The notes under the pieces were generated by a model, which was not told the origin of the DNA, ran no database searches, and saw nothing but the letters and a program-made list of their open reading frames with translations. Positions 28,501 to 56,300 of a DNA stretch of 64,000 nt are shown piece by piece. The position numbers were made by a program, and so were the translations under genes. This stretch comes from Branchiostoma floridae (lineage: Eukaryota; Chordata; Leptocardii; Amphioxiformes; Branchiostomatidae): NCBI RefSeq assembly GCF_000003815.2, contig NC_049979.1, positions 10,882,471 to 10,946,470 on the forward strand. The letters are read 5' to 3'. Position 1 is the first letter of the stretch. Each line of letters begins with the position of its first letter.

Positions 28501-30236
28501 TTATCAACTGGTACAATTACAGTATATTAACTGCTTAAAGCTTAGCTTAAAATGTTCAGCTCGTCATTGCACAGGTAAAATCTTTTCATAGTTTTGCATT
28601 GTCCAGGTCCATATTACGGTTAAATCATGTAGATATTACTGTTTAATTGTCTTGTTGTGATTTTCAAATTGTGTATTTGTTTGCTTGGTTCCTGCAGGGC
28701 CCAGCATCCAGCCAGTGGCCGGACTATGGAGGTGCGGACGAACCAGCCCGGGGTGCAGTTCTACACGGCCAGCTACCTGGATGGGACGCTGGCTGGCAAG
28801 GGTGGGGCCAAGTACAACAAACATGCAGGCTTTTGTCTGGAAACCCAGGTCTACCCTGATGCCATCAACAAAGTGAGCTCTGTTGTCTTTGTTCGGGTTT
28901 GGAGTCACGCCTTTGTTATTAGGAGACTCACAACAATAGGGATAGGCACTGTCATTCTATTAATATCTCTGAAGCTGAAGTTTTGTAGTCTTCTTTGTTT
29001 AACTTTGAAGTCATGCCTTTGTTATTTGCAGACACGTAGATAGGTGTAGGCATGACATAGATCTCACCAATTTTTTTTTCATAGGCTAATGCTAGATTGT
29101 TGTGTTCCCTTGAAGATAGAATCTGCCTGGACAAAAACTATTATTCATGTTGGCACCAACATTGTATTGGATCTTACTGTGGGATTAAACTTCATCACTT
29201 AGCAGTAAATTGGGTAATGAATGCCTCTAGGGCATTTTAAAAGTCTGCTATGTTAAAGTTGTAATCAGGTGATAAGTGATGTTGGTATCCACATGGGGGC
29301 CCCACTAATCACAACCTTCAAAACTTCAGAGAGCTAGAGCTCCTCTTTTGCAATCTTTCATATTCTTTTGCTGCTTGTCTAAAGTTTTTGATCCTTTATT
29401 TACATTGGGGTATCTTGCAGCCTGCTGGCTGAATTGCATACTCATGACAATCAGACTACTTAAAGACGTTGCATCACACATAAAACTTACTTCTTATTCT
29501 CGTTCTAATATTAAGACTTATTCTGAAATGTTTGTTAGTAGCGTGCGGTAGTTGTGCATTGTACACTACATTTATTTATTTATTTATTTATTTATTTAGG
29601 GTAGTCCCTTCAGTTAACGTGGTAACTGATTTCCAAGGGAGCCCTATAACAATAATAATAACTCAAAGTACAAAAGATAACTACAAACATAGGATTGAAC
29701 ATAACAAAGCAATAATCCAATTCGGGTTTGTAAATCATACAAGCAACTTAGGAAAACTCAAAAGAATAACAACTCATACTTAATAACAAAAACAAATCAA
29801 GATCACAAACTCATAGGGGCATTGGACGGTCATTGCGGTCAGAGGTCAGATGTCAGTGCCATTTGTCCTGATCAATCGGACTGAACATAAGAAAGAATAA
29901 TCCAATTCGGATCAGTAAATCATATACGCAACTTACTAATAACAACTCATACACAATAACAATGAATGTGTTACATCATCATCATCATCTGATGAAGTTG
30001 GAGCACATATCAGTTAAGTCCTCTTACAGACCTTGTCGATAACATACCATGTATGAGGTTCTTCCCATGTAGACATGTCTCAGTTTCAGTCAGTTTCTGG
30101 TATGAGGTACATTTTGTATCTTACCTACTGAATGTGTTGTCACTGCCTCCCTGTCCAGCCCCACTTCCCCAGCAGTGTGCTGCGCCCAGGCGAGACGTAC
30201 CACCACCACACCTCCTACAAGTTTGTGCTGGGGTAG
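22512..30236 (+). CDS. GALM: Galactose mutarotase (aldose 1-epimerase), complete, seven exons
   Basis: Cytosolic enzyme that interconverts alpha- and beta-galactose and feeds the Leloir pathway. Exons: 22512-22704, 24211-24365, 25280-25489, 26055-26136, 27644-27791, 28698-28872, 30159-30236. All use GT-AG signals and join in frame to a stop at 30234-30236, giving 346 residues, about the length of human GALM (342). Family landmarks in order: [39 protein letters not shown] (catalytic His), [21 protein letters not shown] (second catalytic His), PGYDQNFC, and FCLETQ (catalytic Glu). All three catalytic positions are kept, so the enzyme should be active. It lies head-to-head with the hnRNP L gene. 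Introns hold dispersed repeats only. Confidence 0.96.
25097..25219. repeat. Dispersed repeat family B, copy 1 (TCAACTGG...TTTTATACCCTAAC)
   Basis: Contains TCAACTGAAGTCTTGGACAG, GACATTTCATGTAGCGTCCA and a GGCAGTTTTTATACCCTAAC end. Related copies are at 37499-37618 and, partially, at 30893-30975 and 34533-34575. Nature unknown. Confidence 0.5.
25507..25743. repeat. Interspersed element with CTGGAGACAGCCCTG end (copy 3)
   Basis: Begins 17 bp after the donor of GALM exon 3 and ends AAGCTGGAGACAGCCCTG. Contains GGACAAAAATTTCACCC, the shared interior motif of this family. Confidence 0.55.
29568..29598. repeat. Simple repeat (TTTA)n
   Basis: About seven tandem TTTA units. It is followed by two diverged direct copies (from about 29693 and 29880) of a segment containing AATAATCCAATTCGG. 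Confidence 0.8.
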
Positions 30237-32522: not shown

Positions 32523-32764
32523 GTGACGTTGCTACCACAGTACCATGTACCAGCTGAGCCAAAGCCCCGATGCAGCGTTCTGTGTATGTCTTTAGATTAT
32601 GTATGGCGGGGGTTAGCGCGAACGCAGACCCCCACTATCAGAAATTCCGCAGCCGAGTTACCCGCGTTTGGGGTAATCGCAGGGGTCAACCCAGGCCGAC
32701 AGTGCAATGGTCAGGCCTCGCCCTGGACAGTCGCCGTGCGTGATCAGCGTACTATCTATGCCAG
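32523..32764 (+). other. Uncertain open exon candidate with strong donor
   Basis: A CpG-rich open segment of 80 codons (ending ...VAVRDQRTIYAR) runs into a perfect donor, GCCAG|GTAAGT, and is followed by a CRE-type TGACGTCA at 32772-32779. No domain is recognised. It might be a 5' exon of the next gene, a promoter-associated transcript or a repeat. Unresolved. Confidence 0.25.
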
Positions 32765-33881
32765 GTAAGTATGACGTCATGAGGTCGGCACACGCACCTA
32801 GCCAAGACAACTTTATCTTTTCATTGTGGTTATCTTCACAAAATGAAGTCTGTAGATAACGGTTGTATGTGATACAAAATCATAAAGGAAATAACGATTT
32901 TAAATCTTCAGTTTGAAAAGTGCACAACTTTTTGGAGCTCGAGAAAAATGATCATAATTTTCGACGTCGCAAAAAAAAGAAACGTTTACGTCTGTGATTT
33001 ATCATTAACATAATTATCTACCTTGCCAATGACGCCTCATGATCATAATCATTGGTGACGTCATTACATCACCTATGGGCATGATACAGTAGTGAGCAGA
33101 TCAGGACCAGTACGCTGACGGGACTAGCAGAGAACCCCAGTCCATTATGCTCGTGATGAGGGATGCTCTATACCAGCCTCCCACCAAAATAAAGTAAACT
33201 AATTTTTTTGCACAAAGATGAGAACATAATATATCTATGTACAGCCGTATATCTCGGTGTAACGCACCTGCTTTGCAGGCAGGCGGTGCGACAGCAGTAG
33301 CTTATATTACCAAAAGCTCCTTGATATTACTGAGCGACCTGTCAAACCAAGGACGTCATTGTCACACCAAACATTTGCACGTCTAATCTCGAACGTTATT
33401 TGGAACTATCTAGTGAGGATGCCCCCTTTTGAAAACAACACAAGACAACATGTGGGGAACAACACTCATAGATACATTCCCACATGCATGTATAGGCTCG
33501 AAAAAAACGCTCGTCACAAATATACATTGGCGCCTTCGTCAGAGAATTGCAGCGAAAATGTTATTACATTTCTATTGTCATAGAAAACAGGTCAACCGTT
33601 TAGATCATAACAAGCATTCCGTGTTGCCGTCAAACCTGTCATTGTCTGTTTGCCTGTGGCAGGGGCTCGCCTATTCACCAGTCACGCCAGTGTGGGACTG
33701 TTTGGGTATTTGCATTTGTCGCCTAGGCAACACGCCCCCTGGATTATCCAGGTGTGTTACTGCAGGTGAATCGGCACAGGTAACGTGGGGACAAGAAACT
33801 AGACAGAGAAAGGGATAGTGTAGCCGAATTTGGCCATATTGTTGAACAAGTCGACGTCGCTGATTATATCATGTATTGAAT

Positions 33882-35069: not shown

Positions 35070-38000
35070 ATGTATTTCCACACCGTGCACGGCACTGCCA
35101 TCACCCTGTCGGGCGACAGGCTGACGGCTACGCGGGGAGACGGCTTCTGTAACGGCATCACCTTCAGCGCCGCCCCCATGGAAGTCGGCGAGGAGATCTC
35201 GATCGAGTTCGTCTCGACGACGTCGTCCTGGAGCGGCGTCTTGCGCTTCGGAGCCACCTCGGTGGACCCGGGCACGTGGAAACAGGAGGACCTGCCGAGG
35301 TACGCCGTGCCTGACCTCACCAACAAGGAAGGCTACTGGGCGAAGGCGATGCCTGAGAACCATTGTGAGCCAGGGAACCTGATGACGTTTCACGTGGACG
35401 CTCAGGGAAACCTGAGGTACTCCGTGAACAATGACGACAAGGGAGTGTTCCTCTCCGGGCTGCCCACCGAAGTACAGCTGTGGGCGCTGCTGGACGTGTA
35501 CGGGGTGACCACCTCCATCAAGTTTGTCAGTACCGGTGAGTTCTCCATTTTTTTCAATCTTCGCAAAGAGGTCTATGTTGTCGATGCTGTTTGTATGTGT
35601 GTTTGTGTGTGTGTGTTGGTGCCTTAATACTTTTTGGGAGTCCAAAACTAAAACAATAGATAAACCCGAATAATTCCCCCCTTGACAGTGATGTTGCTCC
35701 GATCCTTACAGATGATGTCCCCACTGAGATCCTTGCGCGCGGCCCACACGCCCTGAAGGCGTTCAAGGAGGCGGCCAGCTCGGGCACCAAGCCGGTGTTC
35801 CGCACCCGCCTCATGCTGGTCGGGCAGGACAGGGTCGGCAAGACTAGCCTCAAGAAGTCGCTCACGGGGCAGACGTAAGTAACGGGACGACAGACGTTAT
35901 TCCGAGGTTAAACGTCTATACCCACTTTTGTAAACAGTTAATCAGACTGGTAAATTAATGGTTAACAAACTTCTTTGCACACACAACCACACAACGGGAA
36001 ATGTGTTTGATGGTCCACCGAAACTGCTACAGGTGAAAAACATTGGTTGACTTTAAATGAAAACTTTGTGTACCAATATTTTATCCTGCACTACATCCTG
36101 AAGCACTGCATACCAGCTATACCAAGACATCTTTTCCTTCCTCAGGTACGACTCTGGAGAGATCAGCACGGACGGAATCGACACCGCGGACGCCTGTGAG
36201 ATCAACGTGCAGGACGCGACTTCCTGGAAGGTCCACGGCAACCAGGAAGACTCAGACTCAAAGAAGAAAGGCGTGCTGGGTAAGTACGGTATCCGTAGCA
36301 CCGTCCAAGGCGTCACACTACACGGAAATAGCTTACCCTACGAGTCTGCGAGCTCAAAAGGAGAAGTTTCGGTTGTTATACTGCCGGTGTCCTATCGTTT
36401 ACTGAAACCAAGGAGATTTTTTAACCTCCTTGCTGAAACTGAGCAATGTTAGGGATTAGCAAACGTTAGCAGGCCACCGAGTCCTGTCATTGCACGGTGG
36501 ATTTTAAGGCAAAAATACATTCGACTCTGTGGTGATTTTGATATTCGATGACCTTCTGGCGATCAAAAAATTCGACCGAATGTCATTACCTGTGTGGCGC
36601 CGGTTTTCTGACTCTGCACACAGAAGTAGGTAATGACTCTACAGAGCGGGCAGTGAGAGATCACGTATACATACCACTGTTCGCTTGTGCTGAAATTCTA
36701 CCATGTTATTTTCCCCAGACGGATCGTTTGGAGTGGAGGAGGAGTACGCCCAGGCGGTGGCGCACAACATCGTCAAGGCGCTGGTAGCTGAGAGGAGGAA
36801 GAACAAGGACACGGAGGAGCCCGCCAAGAAAGCGAACATTTCGAAGGGCCCCGTCAAGAGCACCGAAAACGCAACAAGCAATGATGATGACGAGAAACCG
36901 GTGGATACAGACCAAATCGTCGAGGTATTCATTGTATTTTTGTCCGATGATGATATCTAGCCCCCATACATGTACATTTGAAACAAGACATTGGAATTCA
37001 GCACAATCGTGAATTCTACAGGAACAGATTGGATTCGGAGCCTCTCCTAGGACGTATTGGAATCGGGATCAATTCTTGGACAATCTGCGATTCTACTAGT
37101 ATAGATTGGGTTAGGGTTAGTACAGCTAGGCTAACCTTAGCCTCAATCCTATCTAAACTACTACTGGTAGAATCGCGAATTGTCCTAGGATCCCAAGCGC
37201 AATCAAATTAAGATAGATTCTAGTTTGTCATAGGACAGATTGCGCTCGCGGACTGCCCTAGGATAAGTCTGTAGATCTGCATTACAACTTTCAGCCCAGC
37301 ACTGGTGCGTTGTGGCTAAAATAATCATGGTGTCGAGCTGCTTGCCCAGACTAACTTAACCCAACTTCTCCGAGTGTTTCCGTCCTAACTGATGTTCTGT
37401 AACTCCCGTGCCTGTTGGTCTTCATTGGTTCGTCGACGTCGCAAATACTTGTGTTTGGGTAATATAGGGCACAACATTGTGATTACAACTGTCGTTTACT
37501 CAATCAACTGGATATGATTTTCAAACGGCAAGACATTTCAGCTAGCATTCACTACCTGCCGCAACACCGGGAACACCGATGAAATCTTGTTGTAGAGCAG
37601 GTTTTATACCCTAACTGTAAATTAAACGGATGATATAAGTCGTATACTCACTATCGTTTTATACCAACAGGTGTACAACAAGCCCCCCGAGCACACTGAG
37701 ATCTCCCTGAAGGATAACGACCTGCTGAAGGACATGCCAGCCCGCGTGGTGGAGCTGGTGACGGGCCTGCTGACGGAGGCGGAGGAACACGGGATGGAGC
37801 ACAAACCTGCCGAGGAGGCCACCAGGCCCAGCATCATCATGAAGATATGGGACTTCGCCGGGCAGTCTGTGTACTACACCACACACCAGGTAATGTTTCA
37901 GTCCGTGTAGTACACCGCACACCAGGTAATGTTTCAGTCCGTGTAGTACACCGCACACCAGGTAACGTTTCAGTCCGTGTACTACACCACACATCAGGTA

Positions 38001-41000
38001 ATGTTTCAGTCCATGTACTACACCACACATCAGGTAATGTTTCAATGCTAATCATAGTTCCTCTTATTGTAATCAAATGCAATGACTTCCGCAGGTGTTT
38101 CTGACGCCGCGAGCCGTCTACACCGTGGCGTTTAACCTGTGCCATGACCTGGACGCCAAGGCGCTGACCCAGGTGCGCCGGTCGGAGGGGAGCGACGATA
38201 AAGCCAAGGTAGGGAAAATGGTCACTCTGCATTGCAAATACGTCATGCTTTACTCATGTTTATATTTCTGTTGCTTATGTTTACAACAACCTCTGTTGTA
38301 TGTTTTCTTCGTTGTTGCAATGAAGTTCTTTAACGGAAACATTTATCAGTCTACGTGAAAGCCAACGCATTTGAGAACTGTAGTCATACATTACGTACCG
38401 GCTGCCGGTGCTATTTTTGATAAAGTTTGAAGCTAATTAGAAATGACCAACCGAAACTGTTGATCACCATGACAATGACACACCCTACATATACTGTAAT
38501 AACATGTCACCTTCTGCCACCAGATTGAATGGGAGGAGAGTGAGATGACCAACATGGACTTCCTGGAGTTCTGGGTGAGCTCGATCCACGCGCACACGGC
38601 AGATAACAAACCTAAACTGCAGAAAAACGGTCACAAGTCGCCGCCGATCTTCCTCGTGGGAACGCACAGGAATTCCCTGGATCCGGACCCTGCCGTCTGC
38701 GAGAAAAAGGTGTGTGTGCCTGTGTTTGCTTTGAACGGTCACAAAATGCCAACACATCGGTGTAATAATCAAACAGACAGGCTGAGTCCTTAGAGGTTTT
38801 AGTGGAAGAAGATTAGATATAGGACCTTGATTAGAGAACAAAATTGGCTTCAAAACCAAAGTACAACTACAACATCATTGGATGAAATCCACAGTGCCTA
38901 GTCCTAGACAATGTGTTCTAGATGTGTATTATATGATGTAACACGTGGACATTTGTATCCACAGACTCGTGAGATTTTCGCAAAAATTCGGAAGAACCTG
39001 AAGGGCCGACCGATGGAGGGTCACGTGGTGATGCCGTACTACGCGGTGGAAAACGGGCTGGAGGACGACACAGAGGTAAATCGGTCGCACAAATACATCT
39101 TGTAACGTTTCATGCTTCTAAGCTACGCAACAAAGTAGATTTTAAAGCATTGGATTAGCAGAGTTCATCAAGCCCCGAGGAAGAAAGGTTGTTGCTAAAA
39201 TCTACCCGGCTGAGTAACTAAGAACCCGGTATAACGTAATGTTTTTTACCAACCCAATATAACTACTTAATAAAGACACAAACCTAATTGAACCATGTAA
39301 CCATATCGTGTAGCAGATGTGGTAGGGTAGGATCATATTTCAGTACCAAAGACAGGACCATGTACTGTACATGTCGCAGGGATATTGAGACATGATCACA
39401 TTTTAGTATCATGGACAGAACAATGCATTGTAGCAGGGATTGTGGAATAAGATCACATTTCAGCACTAAGGACAAGACCGATACAGTAGTAAGGTTAATA
39501 GGATTGAGACCACAGCTCAGTAGGAAAGACAGAATACTTCTAGTAGAGCCGTATGATATGATCAGTTTTCAGCACCAAGGACAGGACCTCGCACCGTAGC
39601 GGGGGTTGTTCGTTAGGATCACTTTTCAGTACTAAGGACATGACCATCTATCATAGCAAGGGAGGTAATATAGAAGTCTTGTGAGTTGTGATTCTTACAT
39701 AACGGTCACGGATATGTTCTACATGCCCGTTATAAGTGTTCAGACTTCACAACGCTACATCTTACACATCCCCAGATCGCCAAGCTGCGGCAGCACATCG
39801 AGGAGGTGGCGTACGGCGAGCCGTACATGGGGGAACACATGCCCATCAGGTGGCTCAAGTTCGAACAGTACGTGGCGCAGGAGACGGAGAACGGAGTGGA
39901 CTCTCTGTCCCTGGAGCAGGTAAATGATGCGGAATACAAAATGTACAAGTACAAAACCTTACACGGGGCTAGGTGCACACACCTTAGATTAGATACTTTT
40001 GATGATTTGATGCTATAACTTCAAGATACTACTGAGCACAATGACGTTGAGAATAAAGAAAGGAAGGATATTAACGTTACATATCAATTGCACAGAAAAT
40101 GTATTTAGTCAAATGTAAAGCCCATGTCCTTTCCTGTTCTCATGAGAGGGCAAGAATCTCTCTTATGCATTCAGCAATCTACATAGCCGAGCGAGAGCAA
40201 GTCCATCCAACTGGGACCTTGTGTTTCTGTACACTATACACGTCATATCTTCCTTCTTTAGGTCCAAGAATCCGTTAAGAAGTTCGGCATCCACAGTAGA
40301 GACGAGCTGGTCGCCATGCTGGGGTTCTACCACGACCTGGGCACTATCGTCTACTTCGGTACCCAGGGCGCCGTGGACGACACGCTGCAGAAGACGGTCA
40401 TCTTCAGGCCACAGTGGCTGGTGGACACCTTCAAGAGGGTCATCACAGTCAAGGACATCGATGATCAGGTATGTCTGCCAAAACAAAGTGTATGAAAAGT
40501 GTTTAAGACATATTTCAAATAATTAGTATCAAACAGTATTGTACGGGATTTTATTGGAAGGAAGCATATTACCACCTGGAGCGGCCTGTCGGCATAAACG
40601 TTACAGCTCATTCCTATACATGTCAGATACTAAAAATATGTGCTAGGATAGTGACCCATCTATAAATCCCAAAATGTCAAGATCAATCCCTTGATCTTAA
40701 GTGGCATGACATGAATAAAAGTTGAAACGTTCTGACTGTCTTTGAAAGGAATATATTTAAATGTGCACACTTCGATCGGGATCTCTATCACAATATCTAT
40801 AGAAATCTCTACATGAGTTAGCAAACTGTGTCGTTACGGCGTCGCTCACGTGTATGATGGTTACCGTTCCAGTGGGACCGGTTCAGTGAGGCGTGGGCGC
40901 GGCTGGACGCGGAAGGCGTGCTGGAGGACTCGCTGATAGACTACATGTGGCGGGACGTGCTGCAGCAGAAGCCGCTCCTCCTCAACCTCATGGACAAGTT

Positions 41001-44000
41001 CGACCTGCTTTGCGAGAGGCTTCCGCCGAAAAAGGTACCTCATCCTTTGACGCTTCGGTCACATTTCCAAACCGTGGCCTGGCCGAGATGTTAAATGAAA
41101 GTGTTTATCACGGAAAATACACGAATTATTGACATGACTAATCATATTCCGTTCTGTGTGCTTTGTTCACTCTTTTATTGTACTTTTCGTTCCCGAAAGC
41201 TGCCCGGCCGGGCCCCGGTTTAAAAATGTGACATAGTGTGAGGAGAAGATGACTGATGACTGATAATGAAGTTCCTGCCTGGATGTCTAACCTTCATCGA
41301 CTAAGGCTTAGGTCGCATTTCCAAACCGTGGCCCAGCCGGGATATTTTGAGAAACAAAAAATTAAAATGTATACCTAGAAATATACACATATTATGCCCA
41401 TGAATCTTATTTTGACATTTTGTGTATTTTGATGTCTTATGTATCATTCTTTTCGCTCCCGAAAGCTGCCCTACCGGGCCCCGGTTTGAAAGTGTGACCT
41501 AGGCTTAAGGGATGTTGAGCTGACAGTTAGATGTACAATGGTTTGACAGGGCATTCCGTGTGACATAACATAACCAGCTGTTGCCGCATCCTGTTGTCCT
41601 GTGTAGATCACTTCCGAGGAGAGAGCGGACTGGGTGAAGAGTTATTACGTCCCCTCCAGGCTGCGTGAGAAACCTCACGACGTGGAGACAGTCACGGACC
41701 AACCGCACTTCTCCTTCTTCCTGTGGTTCCACGGCTTCCTCCCAGGTACAGTTAGAGAGCATGTTCGGATAATAGCAATTAAATATGCATCATTTCTCGT
41801 AACAGATAAGGCACAATCCTGGTGATGGCATGTACTCAGATACACATTGGTTTACTGACAGCCGGGAATGAACTTGCTTTACCAAAGAAGAAAGAAATGG
41901 TCAGTAGTGTGCTACTGCTGAAGGACTTTGCAGAGATAATACTTGACAAGCCCAGCAAAACCTGGTAACAGCAATTAAGCCCCTTCGAGCATTCAAAAGA
42001 GGGCCTACAAGATAGTTGTAGTGCTGTCCATGGTACTGAATGAACCTTTAAAACAACTGTGTTCCTTAGAAAGACGTGAATGGTACTATCATACTGACAC
42101 AAATGTGATAATTTGCATAATTCTTTTATGCTTTTCAATCAGAAAGGGTAGTTACAGCACTGTACATGGTACTGAATGAACCTTCAAAACAACTGCACAA
42201 CATAAGTGTGCTGCTTAAAAACAGTGTCTTCAAACTGTTGCAAATGTGTCAAGCATCACTGCAGTGTATGATTTATTGAGTTTTGCTCCCACCAGACGGG
42301 CTGTTCCACCGGGTGCTGACCCGCGCGGTGCGGTGGGCGCAGGAGTGCGGCGGCCGGGAACCCCAGCTGTACTACCGGAACGCTCGCTTCTACCTGGACG
42401 AGGAGCACGACTACCTGCTGGAGATGGCTCCGCTCAGGCTCTCCAGGATCAAGGTGTGCCCCAATAACTACGTCATCTCGTAGCTCTTAGCATATGAAGT
42501 CTAGCGATCCTGTGTCTGGTCGTGAGTTCGAATCCCAGCTGGTGTCCCTCACCCGAAACGGGAAGGGTATGACGGCGGACGTTAAGCCGTGGTCCAGTGT
42601 TCATTGTATTTGTCGGAAAGAGCTAGGGGAATGGCCCCGTTACAATGCACCTACATATATCGTACCTTTTGTTGCATTTTCTGTCATGACCAGTGGAAGG
42701 CCATGACAGAAAGGTCTTTCGTGGGCTATTGTAAAACTGGTTCGAGATCACTATCACTTTTAGACTGGCTGGCGCCAGCAACTTACACGAGCCAGCAATA
42801 TGTGTTAGGTATAAGAAAGTCATATTATGTTATGGCTTACTGGTCTTCAATACTCGAATAAATCTGCGTCTCTTCTCTATCGTACAGCTTGACGGCATAC
42901 GTTAATGAAAATGCAGTCCATGATAGACTGAAACGAAAGAGGTAATTTTATCAACGAGTTGTCTAATATAAGGCTGTTTCGTTTCCAGGTGTCAGTGGTC
43001 CGGGTGATGGACCTGTCAGATGATGCAGAGGAGGACGATCTAGGAGAAGCCAAACTTCCTCCTCCGGACCCACAGTCGTGTGCCAGGGTATGTAACCACC
43101 GTCCCTCATTTCATTGCCTTGTGTATTTGTAAGTACAGTGCGATTGGGATGGGGCATGCATGGACTGCCGCGATTTGTTGGTCTTGTATCAAACATGAAA
43201 TTTTATTTCTAACAACGGAGAACAGTTTCTGTTTCAGTTCTTCTCATGTAACCCGTATACTTGAAATGAAACACGAAACGGACCCCAAAGTAGCAACAGC
43301 ATGCCTTGTGAATACTTATTGGCATAAACATTAACGTTTCGTTGCAAAATACCCGACCGAGCCCGTGGTAGGACATGTGATGTGGGCCTGAGTTAAGTAG
43401 TTCAGTGCCCAGATGTGGTCTCTGAGTTGGCCTTGCACTGAGCAAACTCGTTTGGCTCGCACGTCAATCATGAAACCAGGTTAGTTTGTCTGACAGATGT
43501 GCTCACCCTTCTGCTGATCTCTCCCCCAGGTGCGACACTTTGTTGACGCGACGCTGGCGGACCTGCAGGAGATGTGGATGAAGAGAGTGAAGTACAGCGT
43601 CACCGTGCAGTGTCCCTGCGGGGACCCACAGGAACACTTCCTCTCACTGGACCAGTGTCTAAGCGGGAAGGTAACGAATTCTGTGTCATGCGTATCATTC
43701 TATACATACAGAAAAAATTCTGCAGGGAAGAGATCAAATTTAAAGACTCTCATAGGAACCTGGAATAGGATAGATAGCAGGCTATATAACGGGATCGCAC
43801 ACATTAGCGTTTCTTGAAATGAAATAAGTATCTTATGATGTTCTAATAAATGTAAGAGAGAAAAATGCTGAGAAGTAATTTTTAAGTCCTCACTTCATCT
43901 ATATATATGCATATTGTAACAAAGTACACTCTACTAAGAGACAACTATGGTTTATAAGTTCTTTCCAAACAACTAATGTTTTTCACCCGCCGAAGGTCGT

Positions 44001-47000
44001 TATGTTATTTTGTGCAAAGTTTAACCCTTGATTCGCCAACCTGATTAAACTATTCAAGAGAGAGACTACAATGGAACACAGTAGTACCGCACATGTCCTA
44101 AACTAACCAACGCTATCGCTTTCGTGTGTTGTAGGTCGTGCTCTGTGAGAAGAACAAGCGAGTCAAGACCCTGCCATTCAGGAAGAACTTCCCGTCGGAA
44201 ACAGTGGCAGGTCAGATTCTGATTGTGTCTTCAATGTTCTGCACACGTGTGACATGATCTGAACCTTTCTTCATATCGTTTGGAGTACTGTACACCTCAG
44301 CCCGGTACAATGCCTCAGGGGCTGAACTCTGCCTGGCATTCGGCAGGTCAGCCAACATCATCCCCGATCATACAATACAAAGACTTTTCTTGTTTTAACA
44401 CTCAGCACTTATGATAAAGGGTAGTAGTACACAAGAACAGTGGACTCCTACTCCTACCATGGTTGCCTGTGTGGCCAAAGGCTATAGAAACGAAAATGGG
44501 CACCACCCCTATATACCGAAAGGTGTAGGAAGGATGTTAAATTTTCATATTAAGATCTTACTCAGATAACTTATCAGTAACGTTACGCTTGTCTTGCAGC
44601 CCGCCCGGCAGCCCCGACAGCCGCGCCCCTGCAGCCGGGACAGCTGCCCCCGTGGGTGCCGGAGGCCGCCAAGCTTCTCAACTCCGACAGAAACGCCGCG
44701 GACTGGGCGGAGCTGGCCAACAGGCTGGGTGAGTAAAGTCTGATATGAAGTTAAGATGTATCCGACGTGACGTTCGGTGTTTGCCACTAGCTTATTTTTT
44801 AAGGTTCTTAACTGTAAAGTAATTGCATAAAACTTTTTCTTGAATAAATCATATAGATCGTGAATCACCGGCCTCAGATTTTAGTTTTTAAAAAGGCCAA
44901 GTATGTTTCCTGGTCGCTACTTTTCATGTTTGCTATATTGTCTCATCAGTATACAAATTGATACTTAGTGATCAGAACATGGTCGGTATAAAAAAAGCTG
45001 TCTTCGCTTTGTAATAATTAGGCTATAGTAGTCAGAAGACGGAGACAAACCGGGAAGCAAACTGGAGTGAGAATGGTCTTGTTTTAGCGCTAGTGAGCCT
45101 ATACTACAGAGATTAGACTCAATGTTTCCCCTCTGTAATACCCAGGCTACAGCAGCCAGAAGACGGAGACGTTCATGAAGTCCGCGGACCCGACCTCCGC
45201 CCTGCTGCGGGACTGGCTGGACGGCAGCGGGGAGGCGGCGGTGGACCTGGTCACCAAGGCGCTGGAGAACATGGGCAGGGACGACGTGCTGCAGGTCATC
45301 AGGGGCCGCCAGGGTAGGCGCAGTTACCAGTTATAAAGTTGTTTTGGATATTTTTAATACAAAGTCAGCTCTTCAATAACTGAGATGTTTAGACCGTGTT
45401 GTATGAAAATAAAGTATAAAGTGAGAGTGCAGTTTGGCGTGACATTTGCGACATTAAGATTCATGTCATTTGAAAGTTCAGGAGGAAGTAATCTCCATAT
45501 TCTATCAAATTGTAGAGATTGTTATGTCTTTGAACAGTTTGCCTGCGGATAAACGTATTGATGACAACTGTTTGTCCTACAGGAGCTGTTGACACCCAGC
45601 CCGACATCTTCATCAGTTACCAGTGGGACATCCAGGACCGTGTGCGGGACCTGCGGGACCGGCTGGAGGCTGCCGGGTACCCCTGCTGGATGGACATCGG
45701 GCAGATGGGCGGAGGGGACGCGCTGTACGAGAAGATCGACCAGGGCATGAGGGCGGCCAAGGTGAGTACATCAGAGACAGATCTGACATCAATGTATGGT
45801 CTGAGCTTTAGACGCTATAGAATTTAGCCTGGTATCCGCCCGTATTCGTCTACCTGAGTTGGTCCCCACCCTTAAGCGCTGTACGAGAAGATCGGCCAGG
45901 GCATGAGGGCGGCCAAAGTGAGTACATCAGAGACAGATCTAGCATCAATGTATGGTCATGAGCTTTAGACGCTATAGAATTTAGCCTGATATCCACCCGT
46001 ATTTATTTACCTGAGCTGGTCCCTACCCTTAAATATAGTATAAGCGCCGTACGAGAAGATCGACCAGGGCATGAGGTCGTCCTAGGTCGGTAGATCAGCT
46101 GTAGTCCCTAGCAGGCTCCATACTGGCCATGGGTTGCGTTCTTGCGGATAAAAAGAGTACAAATTGACCAAAGAGCGTGAACAATTTGCCGGTGTCCCTT
46201 GGCATCCTATAGATGGTCAGCTAACTCACTTGGCAAGTTGTTAAATGGTATTTTTCAGGAACCTAATGAGTACCCCAACTGTCTCATGTTAAAAGTGTTT
46301 ACGTCAATGGTTTATACGCTTTATACGCTGTAGAATCAGCTACTGTGTGGGGTCGACTGTTTTATGATACATGATATTCCATGGAATGGTTGAGAAATAC
46401 ACGTTCATTAGGTATTTTCTTGGTTTCCTGTATACTACACGCAGTATCTTACCCAGCGCTGGTCTACAGTTGATATATATGGTGAGATATACGTTATTCA
46501 AAGTGCTCTATTGTTACCTTTAGACATGCTCTATGCCCTAAACCTCCAAACCTCTAACATGGATTGCTTGTCCTGCAGGTTGTGATCGCCTGCCTGACCA
46601 CCAAGTACTCGGAATATACATAGTTGTTATGCGCTTTGCTGTAAACTACCAAAACTAACATGGGTTACTTGTCCTGCAGGTTGTGATCGCCTGCCTGACC
46701 ACCAAGTACTCGGTGTCGCAGAACTGCAGCAAGGAGATCAACCTGGCCAGCCTGCTGGGGAAGACCATCATCCCCATCATGTTCCAGAAGATCGACTGGC
46801 CCCCGCCCGGCGGCATGTCCCTCATCTTCTCACCGCTGCTCTACATCGACATGACCAGTAAGTTTGGAAACAGTTTTATCAGGTTGTTAGTTCAATAATT
46901 TCGACAAAAGAGGGGCCTCCGTGTCCCCAAGTAGCAAACTTTGTTGCGTGAAATCGTTTTATAATTCGTCGAAAGTAAATTACGACGGACTTTATTTTAT

Positions 47001-47595
47001 AACCAAAATTTGAACCATCGCCGACGTTTTAACAACCTGTCTACTGACATCCTCAAAGGATAAGGACAAATAGGATCATTAATGACTAGTAAAACATACT
47101 GTCAGACCAAACCAATTAATATGAAGTAATATGAATATGATATTCTAATAATTTGATGTAACTGGGCTAAGTTTTTCTTTGATTTTTCCAACAACTACTT
47201 ATTGTAAAGATGGGCCAGTTCTAGCAGTATGTTTCACGATTTTCTCCATCAATTGGTGCATCCACAAATTTATCAAATCATTTTCTGCATACGGATAATC
47301 ATTCAGAGAAGTGACATTTTGCCCGTCTGTTTATCCAGGCAACGGTGGTGGCCATGGCGGTGCCGGCATCCACTCCAAGCTGGAGACCAAGTTCCAGGAG
47401 GTGGTGGAGCGGATCCAGACCACCATCCAGCCTGTCGGCGCGGGGAAGAGGGACAGCACGGTGCCAGAGTCACCGGAGAAGCAGGCAAGCAACACCGGCA
47501 GTCCCGCTAAGAGACCTAACAGTGCTGCAAGGCGACCCAACAGTGCAGTGTCCCAGACACAGGTCACAAAGTGTGGGGCATGTGTCATACTGTAG
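35070..47595 (+). CDS. NHR-Roc-COR-Death-TIR protein with C-terminal CaaX motif (ROCO-type GTPase, candidate innate-immune regulator)
   Basis: No single known gene matches. Exons: 35070-35535, 35712-35874, 36146-36279, 36719-36924, 37671-37889, 38095-38208, 38524-38709, 38965-39075, 39776-39919, 40262-40468, 40873-41034, 41607-41745, 42296-42453, 42989-43087, 43530-43670, 44135-44210, 44600-44728, 45146-45313, 45583-45761, 46680-46857, 47339-47595. All junctions are GT-AG and keep frame over 1211 codons. Residues 1-156 are a Neuralized (NHR) domain. The Roc GTPase has P-loop GQDRVGKTS (193-201), TDGIDT, DFAGQ (384-388) and GTHRN (about 480-484), with a charged insert of over 100 residues between G2 and G3. 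COR runs from about 497 to 830 ([47 protein letters not shown]). A Cys-containing module follows (CPCG). Death is at about 916-1007 ([33 protein letters not shown]). TIR is at about 1014-1127 ([26 protein letters not shown]). The tail ends KCGACVIL. The start at 35070 begins exactly at the NHR domain; an upstream exon is possible. Confidence 0.9.
35595..35617. repeat. GT-rich microsatellite
   Basis: A TGTGT run just after the NHR exon, intronic. Confidence 0.7.
37067..37194. repeat. Imperfect inverted repeat (hairpin) in intron
   Basis: GATTCTACTAGTATAGATTG on the left pairs with TAAACTACTACTGGTAGAATC on the right. The flanks TTGGACAATCTG and GAATTGTCCTAGG continue the pairing. Probably a decayed MITE. 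Confidence 0.5.
37499..37618. repeat. Dispersed repeat family B, copy 2
   Basis: Contains CTCAATCAACTGGATATGAT, GACATTTCAGCTAGCATTCA and GCAGGTTTTATACCCTAAC. Matches the copy at 25097-25219. Confidence 0.55.
37863..38042 (+). repeat. Five-copy 36-bp tandem repeat spanning an exon end and its splice donor
   Basis: Each unit is CAGTC(T/C)GTGTA...CACCAGGTAATGTTT. The first unit carries the last 27 nt of the Roc exon that ends at 37889 and its donor GTAATG. The next four copies repeat the exon end and donor inside the intron. Reading through into copy 2 meets an in-frame TAG, as does copy 3; copies 4 and 5 lack it. Confidence 0.9.
39308..39660. repeat. Diverged minisatellite of about 57-bp period, about six copies
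   Basis: GATCACATTTCAG...AAGGACA-type cores begin at about 39331, 39394, 39451, 39506, 39560 and 39617. Each is followed by GACC and a GTAGCAGGG-type spacer. It lies within an intron of the Roc-COR gene. Confidence 0.75.
41057..41232. repeat. MITE, GGTCACATTTCCAAACCG ends (copy 1)
   Basis: The left end, GGTCACATTTCCAAACCGTGG, is matched by the reverse complement of the right end, CCCCGGTTTAAAAATGTGAC. A related element lies about 80 bp downstream in the same intron. Confidence 0.75.
41311..41499. repeat. MITE, GGTCGCATTTCCAAACCG ends (copy 2)
   Basis: The ends are GGTCGCATTTCCAAACCGTG and CCCCGGTTTGAAAGTGTGACC. Same family as 41057-41232 with a different AT-rich interior. Confidence 0.75.
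42478..42680 (+). repeat. tRNA-derived SINE fragment
   Basis: A degenerate A-box (TAGCTCTTAGCATATGAAG) and a clear B-box (GAGTTCGAATCCC) are followed by a body with GACGTTAAGCCGTGGTCC. It lies in an intron, 24 nt after a COR exon. Boundaries approximate. Confidence 0.6.
45022..45060 (+). pseudogene. Decoy duplicate of the start of the second Death exon
   Basis: TTAG|GCTATAGTAGTCAGAAGACGG copies the real exon start at 45146 (CAG|GCTACAGCAGCCAGAAGACGG) 124 bp upstream, with acceptor AG retained. Similarity ends after about 31 nt. Confidence 0.7.
45719..46085 (+). repeat. Tandem duplication of the 3' end of the first TIR exon plus intron sequence (about 2.3 copies)
   Basis: The block CGCTGTACGAGAAGATCGAC through TTAGCCTGGTATCCGCCCG recurs from about 45875, including the exon end and a donor (GCCAAAGTGAGT). 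A partial third copy begins at about 46047 (CGCCGTACGAGAAGATCGAC). The copies lack a preceding acceptor and are probably inert. Confidence 0.85.
46579..46623 (+). pseudogene. Decoy duplicate of the start of the second TIR exon, with stop
   Basis: Identical to the first 36 nt or so of the real exon (46680), including the acceptor GTCCTGCAG, but diverges after TACTCG into GAATATACATAG. If spliced it would give [14 protein letters not shown] and then a stop. Confidence 0.8.
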
Positions 47596-49419: not shown

Positions 49420-51782
49420 TCACAGCAGCCATGGCATGTCTTTCCTTGGAAAGTCCTTGGCAGTGAATCTGGTATCATACGGACGTTCTCCCCTCCACTT
49501 CAGCAGCTCCTGCAGACACTGCAGGATGACCGGGTCAAAGTTCAGGTCAAACTTGTTAGCAAACAGGTGATGACAGTCAATCAGCCACTGCATGTCTCCG
49601 ACTCCGAAAATGCACACGTCTCGCACGTACTTCCCCTGACAGGGTGGGTACTGCTTACCCTCGAAGTACACCCACTTGATGGCACGGATGGAGGACGACC
49701 ACGTGGGTTTGGAAAACCCACCCGGAGCTGATGGGAGTTTGTTCAGGGTGGCCCAGTAGAACTCGTCTGGGCTGAAAAATAAAAAACGTATGAAAATTTT
49801 GTCCACCATCTAAAATTACATAACATTTAATACATAACACATTTACACTATACGGATTTATCAATCCATTGTAACCACTATCTAGCTATTTTCTATGGAA
49901 CATATTAAACAACAGTCCATCTTACCATAAACCCAGGGCATGGAACACATTTTTCTACATATCTTAACTTAACTATAGATCCAACTGGAAACAGTTAGGA
50001 AACCATTGCAGCTTTTGCATGCTATAGTCAATATAGTAAAAAATCCTCATAGTACATGGTCTAGACATCATAAATCCCTGCATCACTTTAAGCTATACGG
50101 ACCTGTATAAGCAGATAGTATTTTTATGTACCTGTATGTGTCCTGAGACCACTCCAGTAGGTCCTTAGCTACCTTGTCTGTCAGCACCCAGCTCATGAAT
50201 GCACGGCTGGCGATGTAGTATGCGATGCCAGTATAAATGGTCACATTGTGGGGAGGGGGGCTTTTCCTCTTTTCTGTCTGAACCACTGACATCTGACCAT
50301 CCTGAAAGAAATTGTTGAAGGAGCAAACGTTAAGTAACATATATCCACTGCAGGTAACACTGGGGTAAGATTTCTAACCTTTGGTATCAATTCACCCACT
50401 AACTTTTTTAAAGACATTTTTCTCTTTTCACAAGTGTAGAACAAAATCCTACAAACTTGACATTGAATATGCAATAGGACAAAAATCTTCATGAATATTT
50501 TCATCAGGTTGTAGCAGAACCGACAATATTGTCCTGAGGAAGGTAGCAAAAGGACTACCAATATGCTGGCAAGCAAGTATCTCTTGATTGAGTGCTGAGA
50601 ACTTTGCTAGCCACACATCTAGTTTAATAATTTAAGTTTTTTTGCAAATTTTTCCCTGTGAGTGAGTGAGTGAGTAAGCTAATTGCAGGTAACATGGAAT
50701 GGCACTGACAAAAGTGTATGCGTCGACTCTACTTTAACGGTTAACTCTAGATTCTAAGTTGTTGGGTTTGACTTCTCTAATAAGCATCAGAATTATCATA
50801 TCTAGACTTACACTATTGGAGACTACATCGTGGACAAAGCGTGTCCTGTCCCCATGGATGTTGCTGGAAGACTGGACACCAGGAATGTCATTCTGTCCAC
50901 CAAACACTCTCAGCTGTGCAACAATCTCATTCTGCGTCTTGAGTGGGAAGTCCTGCCCAGCCAGGTTGATCACATAGCGCCATCTGACGGGGGAGCTGAC
51001 CAGGTCGTGCAGACAGTTCAGGTCTGCCTGTAGCCTGCTGTACCCGCCGTACACGACGGACTCCAGTCGACGGGAAATGAAAACATTGTCATAGCAGTCC
51101 GCCACTGCCGACAGCACCGCTCTGAACTCGGACGGAGACCTTTTGTCCACATGTATGCAGTATACGTTGTACGGAGTGTAGATGGAATGTAGTAACAGTT
51201 CTACCTGAGCAGCGTTCTTGTGCACGACGAGGATGTATGCTATGGGAAAGTCCCTTGTGTCCACTCCAGCTGACAAGTTCTGCTGCCAGTTCTGAGTATA
51301 GTCAAGACAGCTTGCAGCAGCAACATTCAAATGATGAGAATGTGAGAGAGCTGTGCTAGACTCAGTAAGGTCTGCTTTACTTTGGTTCCTTTGGAGTAAG
51401 TCAACACAGGTGTCCCAGGCAACAGGTCTTTGGGCATGAGTTTGTTTTGCGTGGTGACTTTCTCTTGTGCTGTGTCCAGTGACTCTGTTTCTGCTGCTCC
51501 TGATGTGGGAAAGAAACAAGATTTAAAGTTGATTCAATAGCATCTGGCCACCATGCAAGCAGTTCCATTTTATGAGTGTATTCATCTATAGTTCTGAGAA
51601 AAAAAGATGCCTGTGCCAAGTTACATCTGGAAAAGTGGCATGTACCTTTTGAGAAAGCTGGTAACATGTTGTTTCTTCACAGTCATGTAGTTTGATAAGA
51701 AAGCGAGCCCTACTGCAGCCATGAGGCACACCAGCAGGACCAGACCCAGCCTCCTCCTCCTGCAGGGCACCAGTACTCCCAT
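49420..51782 (-). CDS. Beta-1,6-N-acetylglucosaminyltransferase-like (GCNT family, GT14), complete, four exons
   Basis: Predicted Golgi type II membrane enzyme that adds branching GlcNAc to O-glycans or poly-LacNAc. Exons in transcript order: 51782-51646, 51499-50812, 50301-50132, 49771-49420. All are GT-AG, giving 448 residues, close to GCNT1/3/4 (about 430-450). Residues 1-11 are Arg-rich (CRRRRL) and 12-31 form a hydrophobic signal anchor. The catalytic domain starts with FPIAYILVVHKNAAQVELLL and continues with YNVYCIHVDKRS, VFISRRLESVVYGGYSRLQA, WRYVINLAGQDFPLKTQNEI, and TGIAYYIASRAF. SPDEFYWATL is the family signature near the C-terminus. A Pro-rich KRKSPPP segment precedes the third block. 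Family assignment is firm; acceptor specificity (core-2, I-branching or other) cannot be read. It is divergent to the RdRP gene. Confidence 0.93.
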
Positions 51783-52928: not shown

Positions 52929-53346
52929 GCATTGGCACTGTGCCTGAAACTGAGCGGTGGGAAAACAACAGGTGCGAATGCAATTTCTATCATTATTATG
53001 ACAGTGCCATCTCGAAGTGGTATACCCATAACTGAAATCCCATATCAACTGCTAAGCTTTATGTGTATATTGGGCACATTACCAAACGACGGAAGTGAAT
53101 GCTTTCGGAGTGTTTGGGGCATTCATTAGCTGTGTTTATTTTGGGTGGGCCATAGGCATAGTAGGGCGATGTACATGTACCGTTGGACCCAACGATCAGT
53201 GCCTGAGCGCGGTGGAAAGTTTCTCACTGAGCTACAAGCTTAGATGGTCTTCAAAGTATACTAGCTAACGGATATCTTTTGCGTGAATGACTAATATTAT
53301 TCTAATTTATAAGACTGCTGAATGATATTTACTGTAAACAATAGAC

Positions 53347-56300
53347 ATGGAGGCAGCACAAGACGAAAGCGAGGAAAGTGTCACCGCCGGGCTGCAGGCT
53401 CTTTCTATCTCGACACCAACGACTGGCGACTCGCGAGAGACACAAACGCTTCAAGGAAAAGTCCACAACGCTAACAGTCCCGAGTCACAGGAATACGTCA
53501 ATGAGGTGTTCCTACAATTTACACGAAGTTTCTCCTGGCATGACGCTTCAGCACAGCAAGATGGTTCACATATCATCACATTTGCTCCCCTTGACTCGCA
53601 AGTCGTGAGCATGTCAGCTATATGCCATCAATGGTGCGGCGCCGTGGAAGAGGGAAAGCCTTACTGGCTGGAAATCCCCCCAAACCAGCTGTTGACGATG
53701 GAGCGATCGTCACCCAAGCCGACACAACTGACGTCTCTGCAAGTCTTGGATGTCGCCAGCGTCTCCTTTGGATGCTTCCTCGATCACAGCACCTATATCA
53801 GCCACTGGACGGAGGCATCTGACGAAACACTGGATATCACACTGCACCTAGAGCATGACATCCAGTCCCTGTCAGTGTACATGTCTGTTGATTATCCGTA
53901 CAGTGACGACCTAGGTCCGACAGAGAAGCTAATCATCCCCTACTCCGGCATCGACAATTTCGTCCTCGTGTGTTCTCGCGATAGTGAGGACATAACTCTG
54001 TTCTTTCCGCTCAACAGTGTACCCCGATGTTTCAAGACGAAGACAGTCACCAACAATTTTGGCGAACAGTACGCCCAGGAGGACAGGATCCTATCGTTCT
54101 CCTCCTGTACTGCCGACATCATGGGTTCCAGCTCGGTGCTGGCCGTGCACATCACCGACAGCTCAGCAGACGGCTCCGTTACAGAGGACGTGCTGCACAG
54201 GCTGCAAAAGGTTGGATTTGACGTCTACTTTTCGTCGACCAGAGTAAAACAGGCACCTCAAGCTACAGCTGACTTGAAAATATTCAAGGACTTCGCGGAC
54301 TTTTCGGTGACATATGCCTTGCACTGCCTGCTGTCGAGGGGTTACAAAGTCTCCGACCGTGTCCAGCCGTCCTTTTTTTCCAACTTGGAGGCTGCTGCGA
54401 GGCACGACCCAGTAGCTACAGCAGCCGCTCTTCACCAGGTGGCAGACGGCTGGGTTGACGGGGACTGCTTCTGTGACTTAGAGGAGGCATTTCAAACAGA
54501 GCTGGAGGTGGCGCGTACCACGGGCCCAAACGACGCAGATGATCTCCCCGACCATTACGTCTACGCGAGGAAGGTGGTGGTCACGCCCACTCAAATGTTG
54601 TTCCTCAAGCCCGAGCCTATCGTCGAGAACAGGGTGGTCCGAGAATACGGCGTCGACAACTTCATCCGCGTCGCTTTTCGAGACGAAGACTTCAACAAGC
54701 TTACTGCTCCGAACCCCAACTCCATCAAGTGCGTGACGACACGGGTGAAAGACGTCCTACAGAGAGGCATCAGGATCGGAGGGCGCCACTTCGAGTATCT
54801 GGGCTCCTCAAACAGCCAGATGAGGGAGCACGGCTGTTGGATGTACGCGGCTGAGGACGAGACGACGACGTCAGACATCCGCGCCTGGATGGGCGACCTG
54901 TCGCACGAGCGCTGTGTGGCCACGTACGTCTCACGGCTGGGACAGTTCTTCTCCTCCTCTCGGGACGCGGTCAACGTCAGCGTCGAGGACCGAAGCGTCG
55001 CCGTGATCGATGACGTCACGTCAAGTCAAAGGAGGTATACGTTCTCCGACGGCATCGGGAAGATCTCCGTCCCACTTGCTGAGAAGGTACTGTGATTGTG
55101 TCATTTTGGGTTGAATGATTGATTTAAACTTGGGAAATACAATGTTTCTAATGACTTCTACATCCATCAATGGTTTTATTAGGTTGGCAAACCACAATAA
55201 CAAAGTTCTTTGTGAACAACCAGAGTGCCTTAATACTTAATACCTATCTATAGAGCAAAGTACTAAAATTGCATCCAAGTTACTTTTTAAGTTTATCTAA
55301 ATTGCAATGTTTCTAATAATTTTCAGCCCCATTTGACAAATGACATGCGAAATTCAGCCCTGCGAAAATGAATGAAGTGTTACAAAATGTTGAATTAAGA
55401 TACTAATATTTTGATAGGTAGCGGCAGCTCTGGGTGTCTCCCCCGTCCCCTCCGCCTTCCAAATCCGGTACGGCGGCTGTAAGGGTGTGCTGGCGCAGGA
55501 CCCCAGCCTGGGCCACACGGACCTGATCCACATCCGGGGCAGCATGAAAAAGTTCGAGTCGGAGCACAAAACTCTCGAGGTGACGTCCGTCACCACACCA
55601 GGTGAAGACATAATTACATTCACGCTTTTTGAAACCCATCTGATTCACGTTCTCAACATTATTGCTTGAAGATATATAGCAGGTTATGGTGTCATGGGAT
55701 GCACGTCTCGTTGCAATTAGCTATACATGATAAAAATAGAAAAAAACTTCATCGCACAGCATGCAATTGTACAAGTTACAAAGTATGGCAATTTCTTCAG
55801 ACTAATCTACCTAACACAAGAGCGTGTAGTATTAAGTAATTTCTAACGTTTAGACATTTTCTTATGTATCCCACACAGGACTTGTCATATATGCATGGTC
55901 ACTAATTATATTATTCTCACTACATGTTATGCTGTTGCTCAATTTTCTTTTGTTCGGTATTTTATAGTTGATATTTATTTATGCCCTGCAGGTGCCCTGA
56001 GATAAGATAGGATAGTGATAACACAGTATTGATCGTATCCCAACCCTACAGGTGCCATGAGATAAATCATTAATGATAATACAACAGTGATGATATCCCG
56101 ATCCCGCAGGTTCCCTGAGCCTGAACAGACAGGCCATCACCCTGCTGTCTGGTCTCGGCGTGCCCGATGAAGAGTTCTTCAAGTTACAGGAACGAGTGCT
56201 GAACCAGCTGGCGGAGATGCTGCTTCTGGACGGGGCGGCTGTCAAGGCTCTGTCTGGTGCCCGAGTGGGCATAAAGTAAGTAATGATGTACGAGTTACTC

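What the first reader, a model, noticed from the sequence alone, without database searches (positions are those of the whole stretch)
35070..47595. Unusual domain chain NHR-Roc-COR-Death-TIR-CaaX in one gene
Roc-COR followed by Death is known from DAPK1, NHR from Neuralized ligases, and TIR from Toll/MyD88/SARM1. I know of no characterised protein with all of them in this order. It reads like a GTP-controlled switch with a glycan- or protein-binding N-terminal sensor and two signalling or effector modules: an animal counterpart in layout to STAND-type defence proteins.
Basis: partly seen in the sequence, partly recalled or inferred. Interest (0 to 1): 0.88.

Follow-up and report, generated by a model that had tools for sequence, protein, structure and literature searches.

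The report
Lancelet Roco GTPase with Neuralized, Death, TIR
One animal gene, probably from a lancelet, fuses a Neuralized repeat, a GTPase switch of the kind found in the Parkinson's protein LRRK2, and the Death and TIR signalling domains of immunity and cell death; the combination has been listed in passing for other invertebrates but we found no study of what it does, and it suggests direct tests of how such switches are controlled.

Summary
Window 35070-47595 (+) carries 21 exons that splice, with GT-AG at all 20 introns and matching phases, into one 1211-codon frame. Pfam on the spliced protein gives Neuralized, Roc, COR-A, Death and TIR_2 in that order, each above its cut-off; the protein ends CGACVIL, a CaaX box after a basic tail. 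A break between COR and Death is unlikely: exons 16 and 17 have no in-frame ATG. Among 84 COR-A and 35 Neuralized matches in this genome only this locus has both within 100 kb.

The layout is not new in print: a sea-anemone paper notes 'neuralized' in place of kinase/SH3 beside Roc/COR, Death and TIR_2 in a centipede and an oyster (PMC5094078), and an Aplysia figure legend holds all five names (PMC9334734). I found no functional study.

Most likely it is a membrane-tethered Roco GTPase gating a Death-TIR platform (inferred). Against a simple reading: G4 is THRN, not THxD; the TIR keeps the NADase glutamate but lacks the pocket tryptophan. Lead: LRRK2's Roc binds NEURL4's NHR region (PMC4565672); here an NHR and a Roc are fused.

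The parts
35070..35535 (+). Exon 1: start ATG and the Neuralized homology repeat (aa 1-155)
   Evidence: PF07177 142.3 bits, aa 3-153; nearest solved chains Drosophila-type Protein neuralized 2yue and 4kg0, E 3.4e-43 and 4.7e-43 (species recalled)
35712..35874 (+). Exon 2: start of Roc with P-loop G1 GQDRVGKTS (aa 193-201)
   Evidence: phmmer to Roco chain 4wnr from aa 158; motif place
36146..36279 (+). Exon 3: Roc G2-type motif TDGID (aa 218) and start of the Roc insert
   Evidence: TDGI also in paralogues L043 and L044
36719..36924 (+). Exon 4: acidic insert inside Roc (about aa 226-372)
   Evidence: query 222 and 378 align to 4wnr 77 and 90; pI 4.75
37671..37889 (+). Exon 5: end of insert and Roc G3 WDFAGQ (aa 383)
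   Evidence: Pfam Roc best stretch 373-410
38095..38208 (+). Exon 6: Roc
   Evidence: phmmer 378-433 to 4wnr
38524..38709 (+). Exon 7: Roc, G4-type motif VGTHRN (aa 479)
38965..39075 (+). Exon 8: end of Roc
   Evidence: most paralogue matches begin at aa 482-504
39776..41034 (+). Exons 9-11 (39776-39919, 40262-40468, 40873-41034): COR-A (aa 556-696)
   Evidence: PF16095 52.5 bits
41607..44210 (+). Exons 12-16 (41607-41745, 42296-42453, 42989-43087, 43530-43670, 44135-44210): COR-B-like region (aa 744-880) and linker
   Evidence: COR-B 12.3 bits, below cut-off 27; paralogues align as far as aa 876
44600..45313 (+). Exons 17-18 (44600-44728, 45146-45313): Death domain (aa 941-1004)
   Evidence: PF00531 40.8 bits; nearest solved chains NRADD, TNFRSF16 (p75), NF-kB p100, MyD88
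45583..46857 (+). Exons 19-20 (45583-45761, 46680-46857): TIR domain (aa 1016-1128), glutamate aa 1086
   Evidence: PF13676 81.7 bits; aligned with bacterial TIR proteins and SARM1; residue checked
47339..47595 (+). Exon 21: basic tail (aa 1129-1211, pI 9.78) ending in CaaX box CVIL, and stop

Best explanation
One gene encodes a 136 kDa Roco-family protein. Shown from sequence: an N-terminal Neuralized homology repeat, a Roc GTPase domain with a long acidic insert, COR-A, a Death domain, a TIR domain and a basic tail ending in a CaaX box. Inferred mechanism: the CaaX box (X = Leu, so probably geranylgeranyl; recalled rule) and basic tail hold the protein at a membrane; the NHR senses a protein or lipid partner and, by analogy with the NEURL4-LRRK2 contact, also packs on its own Roc; the nucleotide state of Roc-COR sets dimerisation; release exposes Death and TIR, which oligomerise and recruit Death/TIR partners of innate-immune or cell-death signalling. 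In short, a receptor-like switch and a MyD88-like adaptor in one chain.
For: Single frame over 21 exons. Five domains over Pfam cut-offs and in order. Roc keeps G1 and G3 motifs. The closest relatives in the genome are Roc-COR exons at 29-36% identity; 14 of 84 COR-A matches have a Death match downstream on the same strand within 15 kb, counted on all 150 Death matches scored (only 150 of 588 Death candidates were scored, so a lower bound). Human LRRK2 binds NEURL4 through its Roc and the NHR3-4 region, more strongly in the GTP-binding mutant T1348N and in R1441G (PMC4565672, passages). In a tree of 16 NHRs the query falls beside the six-NHR cluster on C10, which by its number of repeats looks like NEURL4 (support 86/87). 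A Roco monomer-dimer cycle set by nucleotide is proposed in PMC6337361 (passages). Same set of domains reported in other phyla.
Against: G4 is THRN, not THxD, so guanine specificity is in doubt. COR-B, the dimerising half, is below cut-off. The NHR's highest identity is to a Neuralized-type NHR (51%), not to the C10 cluster (best 44%), and no starred set of up to half the rows holds the query. LRRK2-NEURL4 binding was seen by co-immunoprecipitation, depended in part on WD40 as well, and used NHR3-4, so it may not carry over. No transcript, protein or localisation data.
Confidence: 0.42

Rival explanations
1. The TIR is an NAD-cleaving enzyme, as in SARM1 and bacterial TIRs, and the Roc-COR and Death parts switch on NAD loss and cell death.
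For: Searching the PDB with the TIR gave 18 sequences at E up to 10; the best are bacterial TIR proteins (7uxr, 3h16, AbTIR 8g83 and 7uwg) followed by SARM1, and none is named as a TLR or MyD88 TIR. In the SARM1 alignment the KEI motif, whose Glu I recall as catalytic, lies opposite KEI here, Glu 1086. Matches to phage-defence TIR effector models, best E 1e-11, 42.8 bits.
Against: The tryptophan four places before the glutamate (W71 for E75 in the numbering of PMC7075850, a ligand contact in SARM1; passages) is absent: Asn 1082 stands opposite the Trp of 3h16, and in the SARM1 alignment that Trp falls in an insert. The same survey says this glutamate is in over 70% of all TIRs and does not necessarily go with activity. 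No ARM or SAM domain.
Confidence: 0.25
2. A trafficking regulator of Notch ligands or other membrane cargo, in which the NHR binds cargo as Neuralized does and Roc-COR times it; Death and TIR only recruit partners.
For: The NHR resembles Protein neuralized and a Neuralized-type NHR of this genome at 51%. The LRRK2-NEURL4-HERC2 complex promotes recycling of Delta-like 1/Delta (PMC4565672, passages). Membrane anchor predicted.
Against: No RING or other ligase domain in the Pfam table. Death plus TIR is typical of immune and death signalling (recalled).
Confidence: 0.15
3. Two neighbouring genes (NHR-Roc-COR and a MyD88-like Death-TIR) wrongly joined.
For: No transcript evidence. An in-frame ATG at 45561 lies just before the TIR exon, so a TIR-only product is possible.
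Against: No in-frame ATG in the open stretch upstream of, or inside, exons 16 and 17; the first ATG in exon 18 (45175) is inside the Death domain; intron 16 is 389 bp. Same set of domains reported as one protein in other species.
Confidence: 0.05
4. A decaying or rarely used gene: the changed G4 and the duplicated splice sites mark relaxed constraint.
For: G4 change; copies of splice junctions in introns 5, 17 and 19.
Against: No stop or frameshift in 1211 codons, GC3 0.836.
Confidence: 0.06

Closest known systems
TIR_2 proteins of Strigamia maritima and Crassostrea gigas with 'neuralized', and sea anemone NG3 (kinase, SH3, Roc/COR, Death, TIR) (PMC5094078)
   Same: Death and TIR (or TIR_2) with central Roc/COR; 'neuralized' in place of kinase and SH3 in centipede and oyster (section 11 read)
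   Different: A one-sentence database observation; sequences, exact order, CaaX and residues are not given there, and I could not fetch them
Aplysia TIR-plus-COR proteins, incl. MyD88-like LOC101861518 (PMC9334734)
   Same: NHR, ROC, COR, Death and TIR are among the labels of Fig. 6; a MyD88-like protein with ROCO domain is named (passages)
   Different: Labels also include EF-hand, LRR and Mbt; the passages do not say which protein carries which set; figure not held
DAPK1 (Roco group 3)
   Same: Roc-COR followed by a Death domain, no LRR (PMC6337361, passages)
   Different: Has an N-terminal kinase; no NHR, no TIR
LRRK2 with NEURL4
   Same: A Roc and NHR domains bind, in two proteins (PMC4565672, passages)
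   Different: Not fused; LRR, kinase and WD40 absent here
TPR-ROCO-TIR of the red alga Chondrus crispus
   Same: Roco with TIR (PMC11378527, passages)
   Different: TPR instead of NHR, no Death domain named
MyD88
   Same: Death and TIR in one chain (Death match to MyD88)
   Different: No GTPase, NHR or CaaX; the TIR search returned no MyD88 TIR
SARM1 and bacterial TIR NADases
   Same: TIR sequence class and glutamate
   Different: Pocket tryptophan absent; no ARM/SAM

Membership tests
Roco proteins | Roc followed by COR | tested here: met
   Roc 49.0 bits, COR-A 52.5 bits, both over cut-off
Roco proteins | COR-B, dimerising half | tested here: inconclusive
   12.3 bits, cut-off 27; paralogue alignments run to aa 869-876, but Pfam gives no COR-B in 4 of 4 paralogous COR exons either
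Roco proteins | G1 and G3 GTP-binding motifs | tested here: met
   GQDRVGKTS aa 193, WDFAGQ aa 383
Roco proteins | G4 motif THxD or NKxD (consensus recalled) | tested here: not met
   THRN aa 481-484; three distinct paralogous places with a G4 have THSD, THKD, TNKD
DAPK1-type Roco (group 3) | Death domain after Roc-COR, no LRR | tested here: met
   definition PMC6337361
DAPK1-type Roco (group 3) | N-terminal kinase | tested here: not met
   no kinase in Pfam table at E up to 1
NHR-Roc-COR-Death-TIR architecture | All five domains in one chain | tested here: met
   one transcript not shown
Neuralized E3 ligases | NHR plus RING | tested here: not met
   NHR present, no RING in Pfam table
SARM1-type TIR NADase | Catalytic glutamate | tested here: met
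   aa 1086 opposite SARM1 KEI
SARM1-type TIR NADase | Pocket tryptophan before the glutamate | tested here: not met
   Asn 1082 opposite Trp of 3h16; insert in SARM1 alignment; role of Trp from PMC7075850
SARM1-type TIR NADase | NAD cleavage | not testable with these tools
   needs an enzyme assay
STAND NTPases | NACHT or NB-ARC NTPase | tested here: not met
   none at E up to 1
CaaX prenylated proteins | C-terminal CaaX | tested here: met
   CVIL aa 1208-1211
CaaX prenylated proteins | Prenylation and membrane location | not testable with these tools
   needs labelling or imaging

The most novel reading that the evidence does not exclude
The gene is a natural fusion of a contact known to me only between two proteins: the NHR region of NEURL4 with the Roc of LRRK2. 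The NHR acts as a nucleotide-sensitive lid on Roc, and in this lineage the output is not a kinase but a membrane-tethered Death-TIR platform, an old animal innate-immune or cell-death switch that vertebrates lost. With the G4 Asp changed to Asn, its nucleotide preference may also have shifted.
Probability: 0.2. Interest if true: 0.78.

Novelty: new member of a known kind. Interest (0 to 1): 0.5.

Why it matters
Roco proteins are studied largely because of LRRK2 in Parkinson's disease, and how partner domains control Roc is unsettled. A protein in which an NHR is covalently joined to a Roc would let that contact be tested in a defined one-to-one construct. The gene also joins GTPase, Death and TIR modules, in a layout reported from a centipede and an oyster, so it may be an old bilaterian signalling device that is missing among the four vertebrate Roco proteins (MFHAS1, DAPK1, LRRK1, LRRK2; PMC6337361).

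Tried and rejected
STAND-type NTPase: rejected, no NACHT or NB-ARC. Known prokaryotic defence protein: the Roc-COR part (549 aa) has no PADLOC match at E up to 0.01 and the TIR matches 12 models, best 42.8 bits. Multi-copy family for the full chain: rejected within the limits; of 84 COR-A places only this one has any of the 35 NHR places within 100 kb. Two further Roc-COR loci have a TIR_2 match within 25 kb on the same strand (C4:27916394, TIR 3.3 kb upstream; C18:16185013, TIR 13 kb downstream). I fetched them; the open stretch read behind Roc-COR in L044 (8734-9207) has no Pfam match, and I did not settle whether these TIRs belong to the same genes. First exon 2 acceptor choice (35689) broke the frame and was replaced by 35712.

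Literature for a function of this layout: searches gave none in what was listed. The main text of the 2008 amphioxus TIR/NACHT survey PMC2575513 holds no word beginning with Roc, neuralized or GTPase; the oyster paper PMC4346834 holds none of Roc, COR, neuralized, NHR or GTPase as whole words. PMC8195603 and PMC7159879 were seen in passages only and gave no such protein there.

Structure prediction was not used: the protein exists only as a splice of 21 pieces, and the tool asks for letter-for-letter translations of the DNA, so I did not submit it.
Full report
Where it is. The window is G000:C1:10882471-10946470 of a genome of 513,431,437 bases in 431 contigs. The size, and contigs numbered up to C19 that are 17 Mb or longer where I saw their length, fit the Florida lancelet Branchiostoma floridae; that name is my recall and inference, no tool gave it.

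Gene model. I translated the region in three frames and placed splice sites by hand. With the second exon starting at 35712 the 21 exons join into one frame of 1211 codons ending at 47595. All 20 introns are GT-AG and all phases agree. Exons have GC 0.612 and GC at third positions 0.836, introns 0.410. The splices inside domains are supported by score gains after joining: TIR_2 44.1 to 81.7 bits, COR-A 36.3 to 52.5, Death 28.6 to 40.8, Roc 14.8 and 20.9 in separate pieces to 49.0. Splices between domains are not tested this way.

Is it one gene? Exons 16 and 17 have no in-frame ATG upstream within the open stretch and none inside; the first ATG of exon 18 (45175) is inside the Death domain; intron 16 is 389 bp. 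A separate Death-TIR gene would therefore need a further start exon in that intron or a start inside the Death domain. An ATG at 45561 lies in frame before the TIR exon, so a TIR-only product cannot be excluded. The same set of domains in one protein is reported from a centipede and an oyster (PMC5094078, section 11 read), which speaks for one gene. There is no transcript evidence here.

Domains. Neuralized 3-153 (142.3 bits), Roc (two stretches, best 373-410, 49.0), COR-A 556-696 (52.5), Death 941-1004 (40.8) and TIR_2 1016-1128 (81.7) are over their Pfam cut-offs; so, just, is Ras over the P-loop (21.8 against 21.6). COR-B 744-880 is at 12.3 bits, below its cut-off of 27. By sequence the nearest solved proteins are Protein neuralized for the NHR, Roco chain 4wnr, a bacterial 'Rab family protein' (3dpu, the Chlorobium Roco by recall) and LRRK2 for Roc-COR, NRADD, TNFRSF16, NF-kB p100 and MyD88 for Death, bacterial TIR proteins and SARM1 for TIR. 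Roc holds G1 at 193 and G3 at 383, with an acidic insert of about 145 residues between; query 222 and 378 align to 4wnr 77 and 90. G4 reads GTHRN. My pattern found other G4 motifs in three distinct paralogous places: GTHSD (C3, fetched twice), GTHKD (C19) and GTNKD (C18); the remaining places gave none. The Asp of this motif normally sets guanine specificity (recall), so GTP control is likely but not secure. The tail 1129-1211 has pI 9.78 and ends CGACVIL; X = Leu usually means geranylgeranylation (recall).

TIR activity. The glutamate opposite the one I recall as catalytic in SARM1 is aa 1086. The tryptophan four places before it, a ligand contact in SARM1 (PMC7075850, passages), is Asn 1082 here by the alignment to 3h16; in the SARM1 alignment it falls in an insert. 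The same survey reports that this glutamate is in over 70% of TIRs and does not necessarily go with activity. So NAD cleavage is possible, not shown.

Relatives in the same genome. COR-A has 84 matches, Death 150 scored of 588 candidates, TIR_2 145, Neuralized 35; the tool calls such counts lower bounds. On all of these, only this locus has COR-A and Neuralized within 100 kb; 14 of 84 COR-A matches have a Death match downstream on the same strand within 15 kb (the window's own Death exon is not among the 150); 3 of 84, this one included, have a TIR_2 match within 25 kb on the same strand. The closest Roc-COR relatives are 29-36% identical, so the gene sits near the genome's Roc-COR-Death genes but stands apart. 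A tree of 16 NHRs (15 of the 35 places plus the query) puts the query next to the six NHRs on C10 (86/87, not starred), a layout like NEURL4; by identity it is nearest to a Neuralized-type NHR (51%, against 44% for the best C10 copy). The type of NHR is thus open between the two.

What is in print. PMC5094078 (section 11 read; passages) describes sea-anemone gene NG3, with kinase, SH3, Roc/COR, Death and TIR, and says that the most similar domain combination in a database had 'neuralized' in place of kinase and SH3, in Strigamia maritima and Crassostrea gigas, with a less similar one in sea urchin. It also says TIR_2 occurs with GTPase domains in several bacteria. PMC9334734 (passages) has an Aplysia figure legend with NHR, ROC, COR, Death and TIR among its labels and mentions a ROCO-bearing MyD88-like protein, LOC101861518. 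[quoted passage not shown] So the layout is known as an entry, not as a studied system. My searches for it were in an open-access library; subscription papers are mostly not covered, and long result lists were seen only in part.

Mechanism. PMC4565672 (passages) reports that LRRK2 binds NEURL4 through its ROC domain (and partly WD40) and through a region with NHR3 and NHR4, and that the GTP-binding mutant T1348N and R1441G strengthen this. In the present gene an NHR lies directly N-terminal to the Roc. A fusion of two parts that bind each other elsewhere suggests an intramolecular contact sensitive to nucleotide. Roco proteins are proposed to cycle between monomer and dimer with nucleotide (PMC6337361, passages). 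I therefore propose a membrane-tethered switch in which NHR and Roc-COR hold back a Death-TIR platform. Domain presence is shown; every step of the switch is inferred. Probability about 0.42 for the outline, 0.2 for the NHR-lid version.

Verdict. Observation confirmed, interpretation partly supported, new member of a known but, as far as I could see, unstudied kind, interest 0.5.

Noticed in passing
37863-38044, 45008, 45894, 46062, 46565: Introns 5, 17 and 19 carry extra copies of the neighbouring exon-intron junction: four copies of exon 5's end plus donor (36-bp units, 88-94%), one acceptor copy (82%) in intron 17, two donor copies (94%, 82%) and one acceptor copy (97%) in intron 19; the other 17 introns have none at 75% or more. 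In intron 5 read-through meets a stop after 6 codons.
   Followed up: partly
53338-60705 (+): A eukaryotic RNA-dependent RNA polymerase gene (PF05183 162.9 and 288.4 bits in two open stretches; metazoan RdRP PH-like domain at 25.7 bits, just under its cut-off). RdRPs in animals, Branchiostoma included, are known (PMC6396948, search listing only).
   Followed up: partly
50737-51522 (-): Core-2/I-branching glycosyltransferase exon (PF02485, 106.4 bits).
   Followed up: no
28633-29040 (+): Open stretch with an aldose 1-epimerase match (PF01263, 43.0 bits).
   Followed up: no
32607-32772 (-): U1 spliceosomal RNA, full length, 132.8 bits.
   Followed up: no
L046 (G000:C1:35258500-35268400): A Death domain exon (62.9 bits) lies 3.0 kb upstream of an NHR exon on the same strand, the only such pair among 35 NHR and 150 Death places: possibly another Death-NHR combination.
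   Followed up: partly
L044, L045 (G000:C18): Roc-COR gene followed by an unassigned open stretch at L044:8734-9207 with no Pfam match; further on a 412-aa open stretch at L045:164 that reads like a glycosyltransferase (my reading, no Pfam run), and a TIR_2 match 13 kb from the COR-A.
   Followed up: partly
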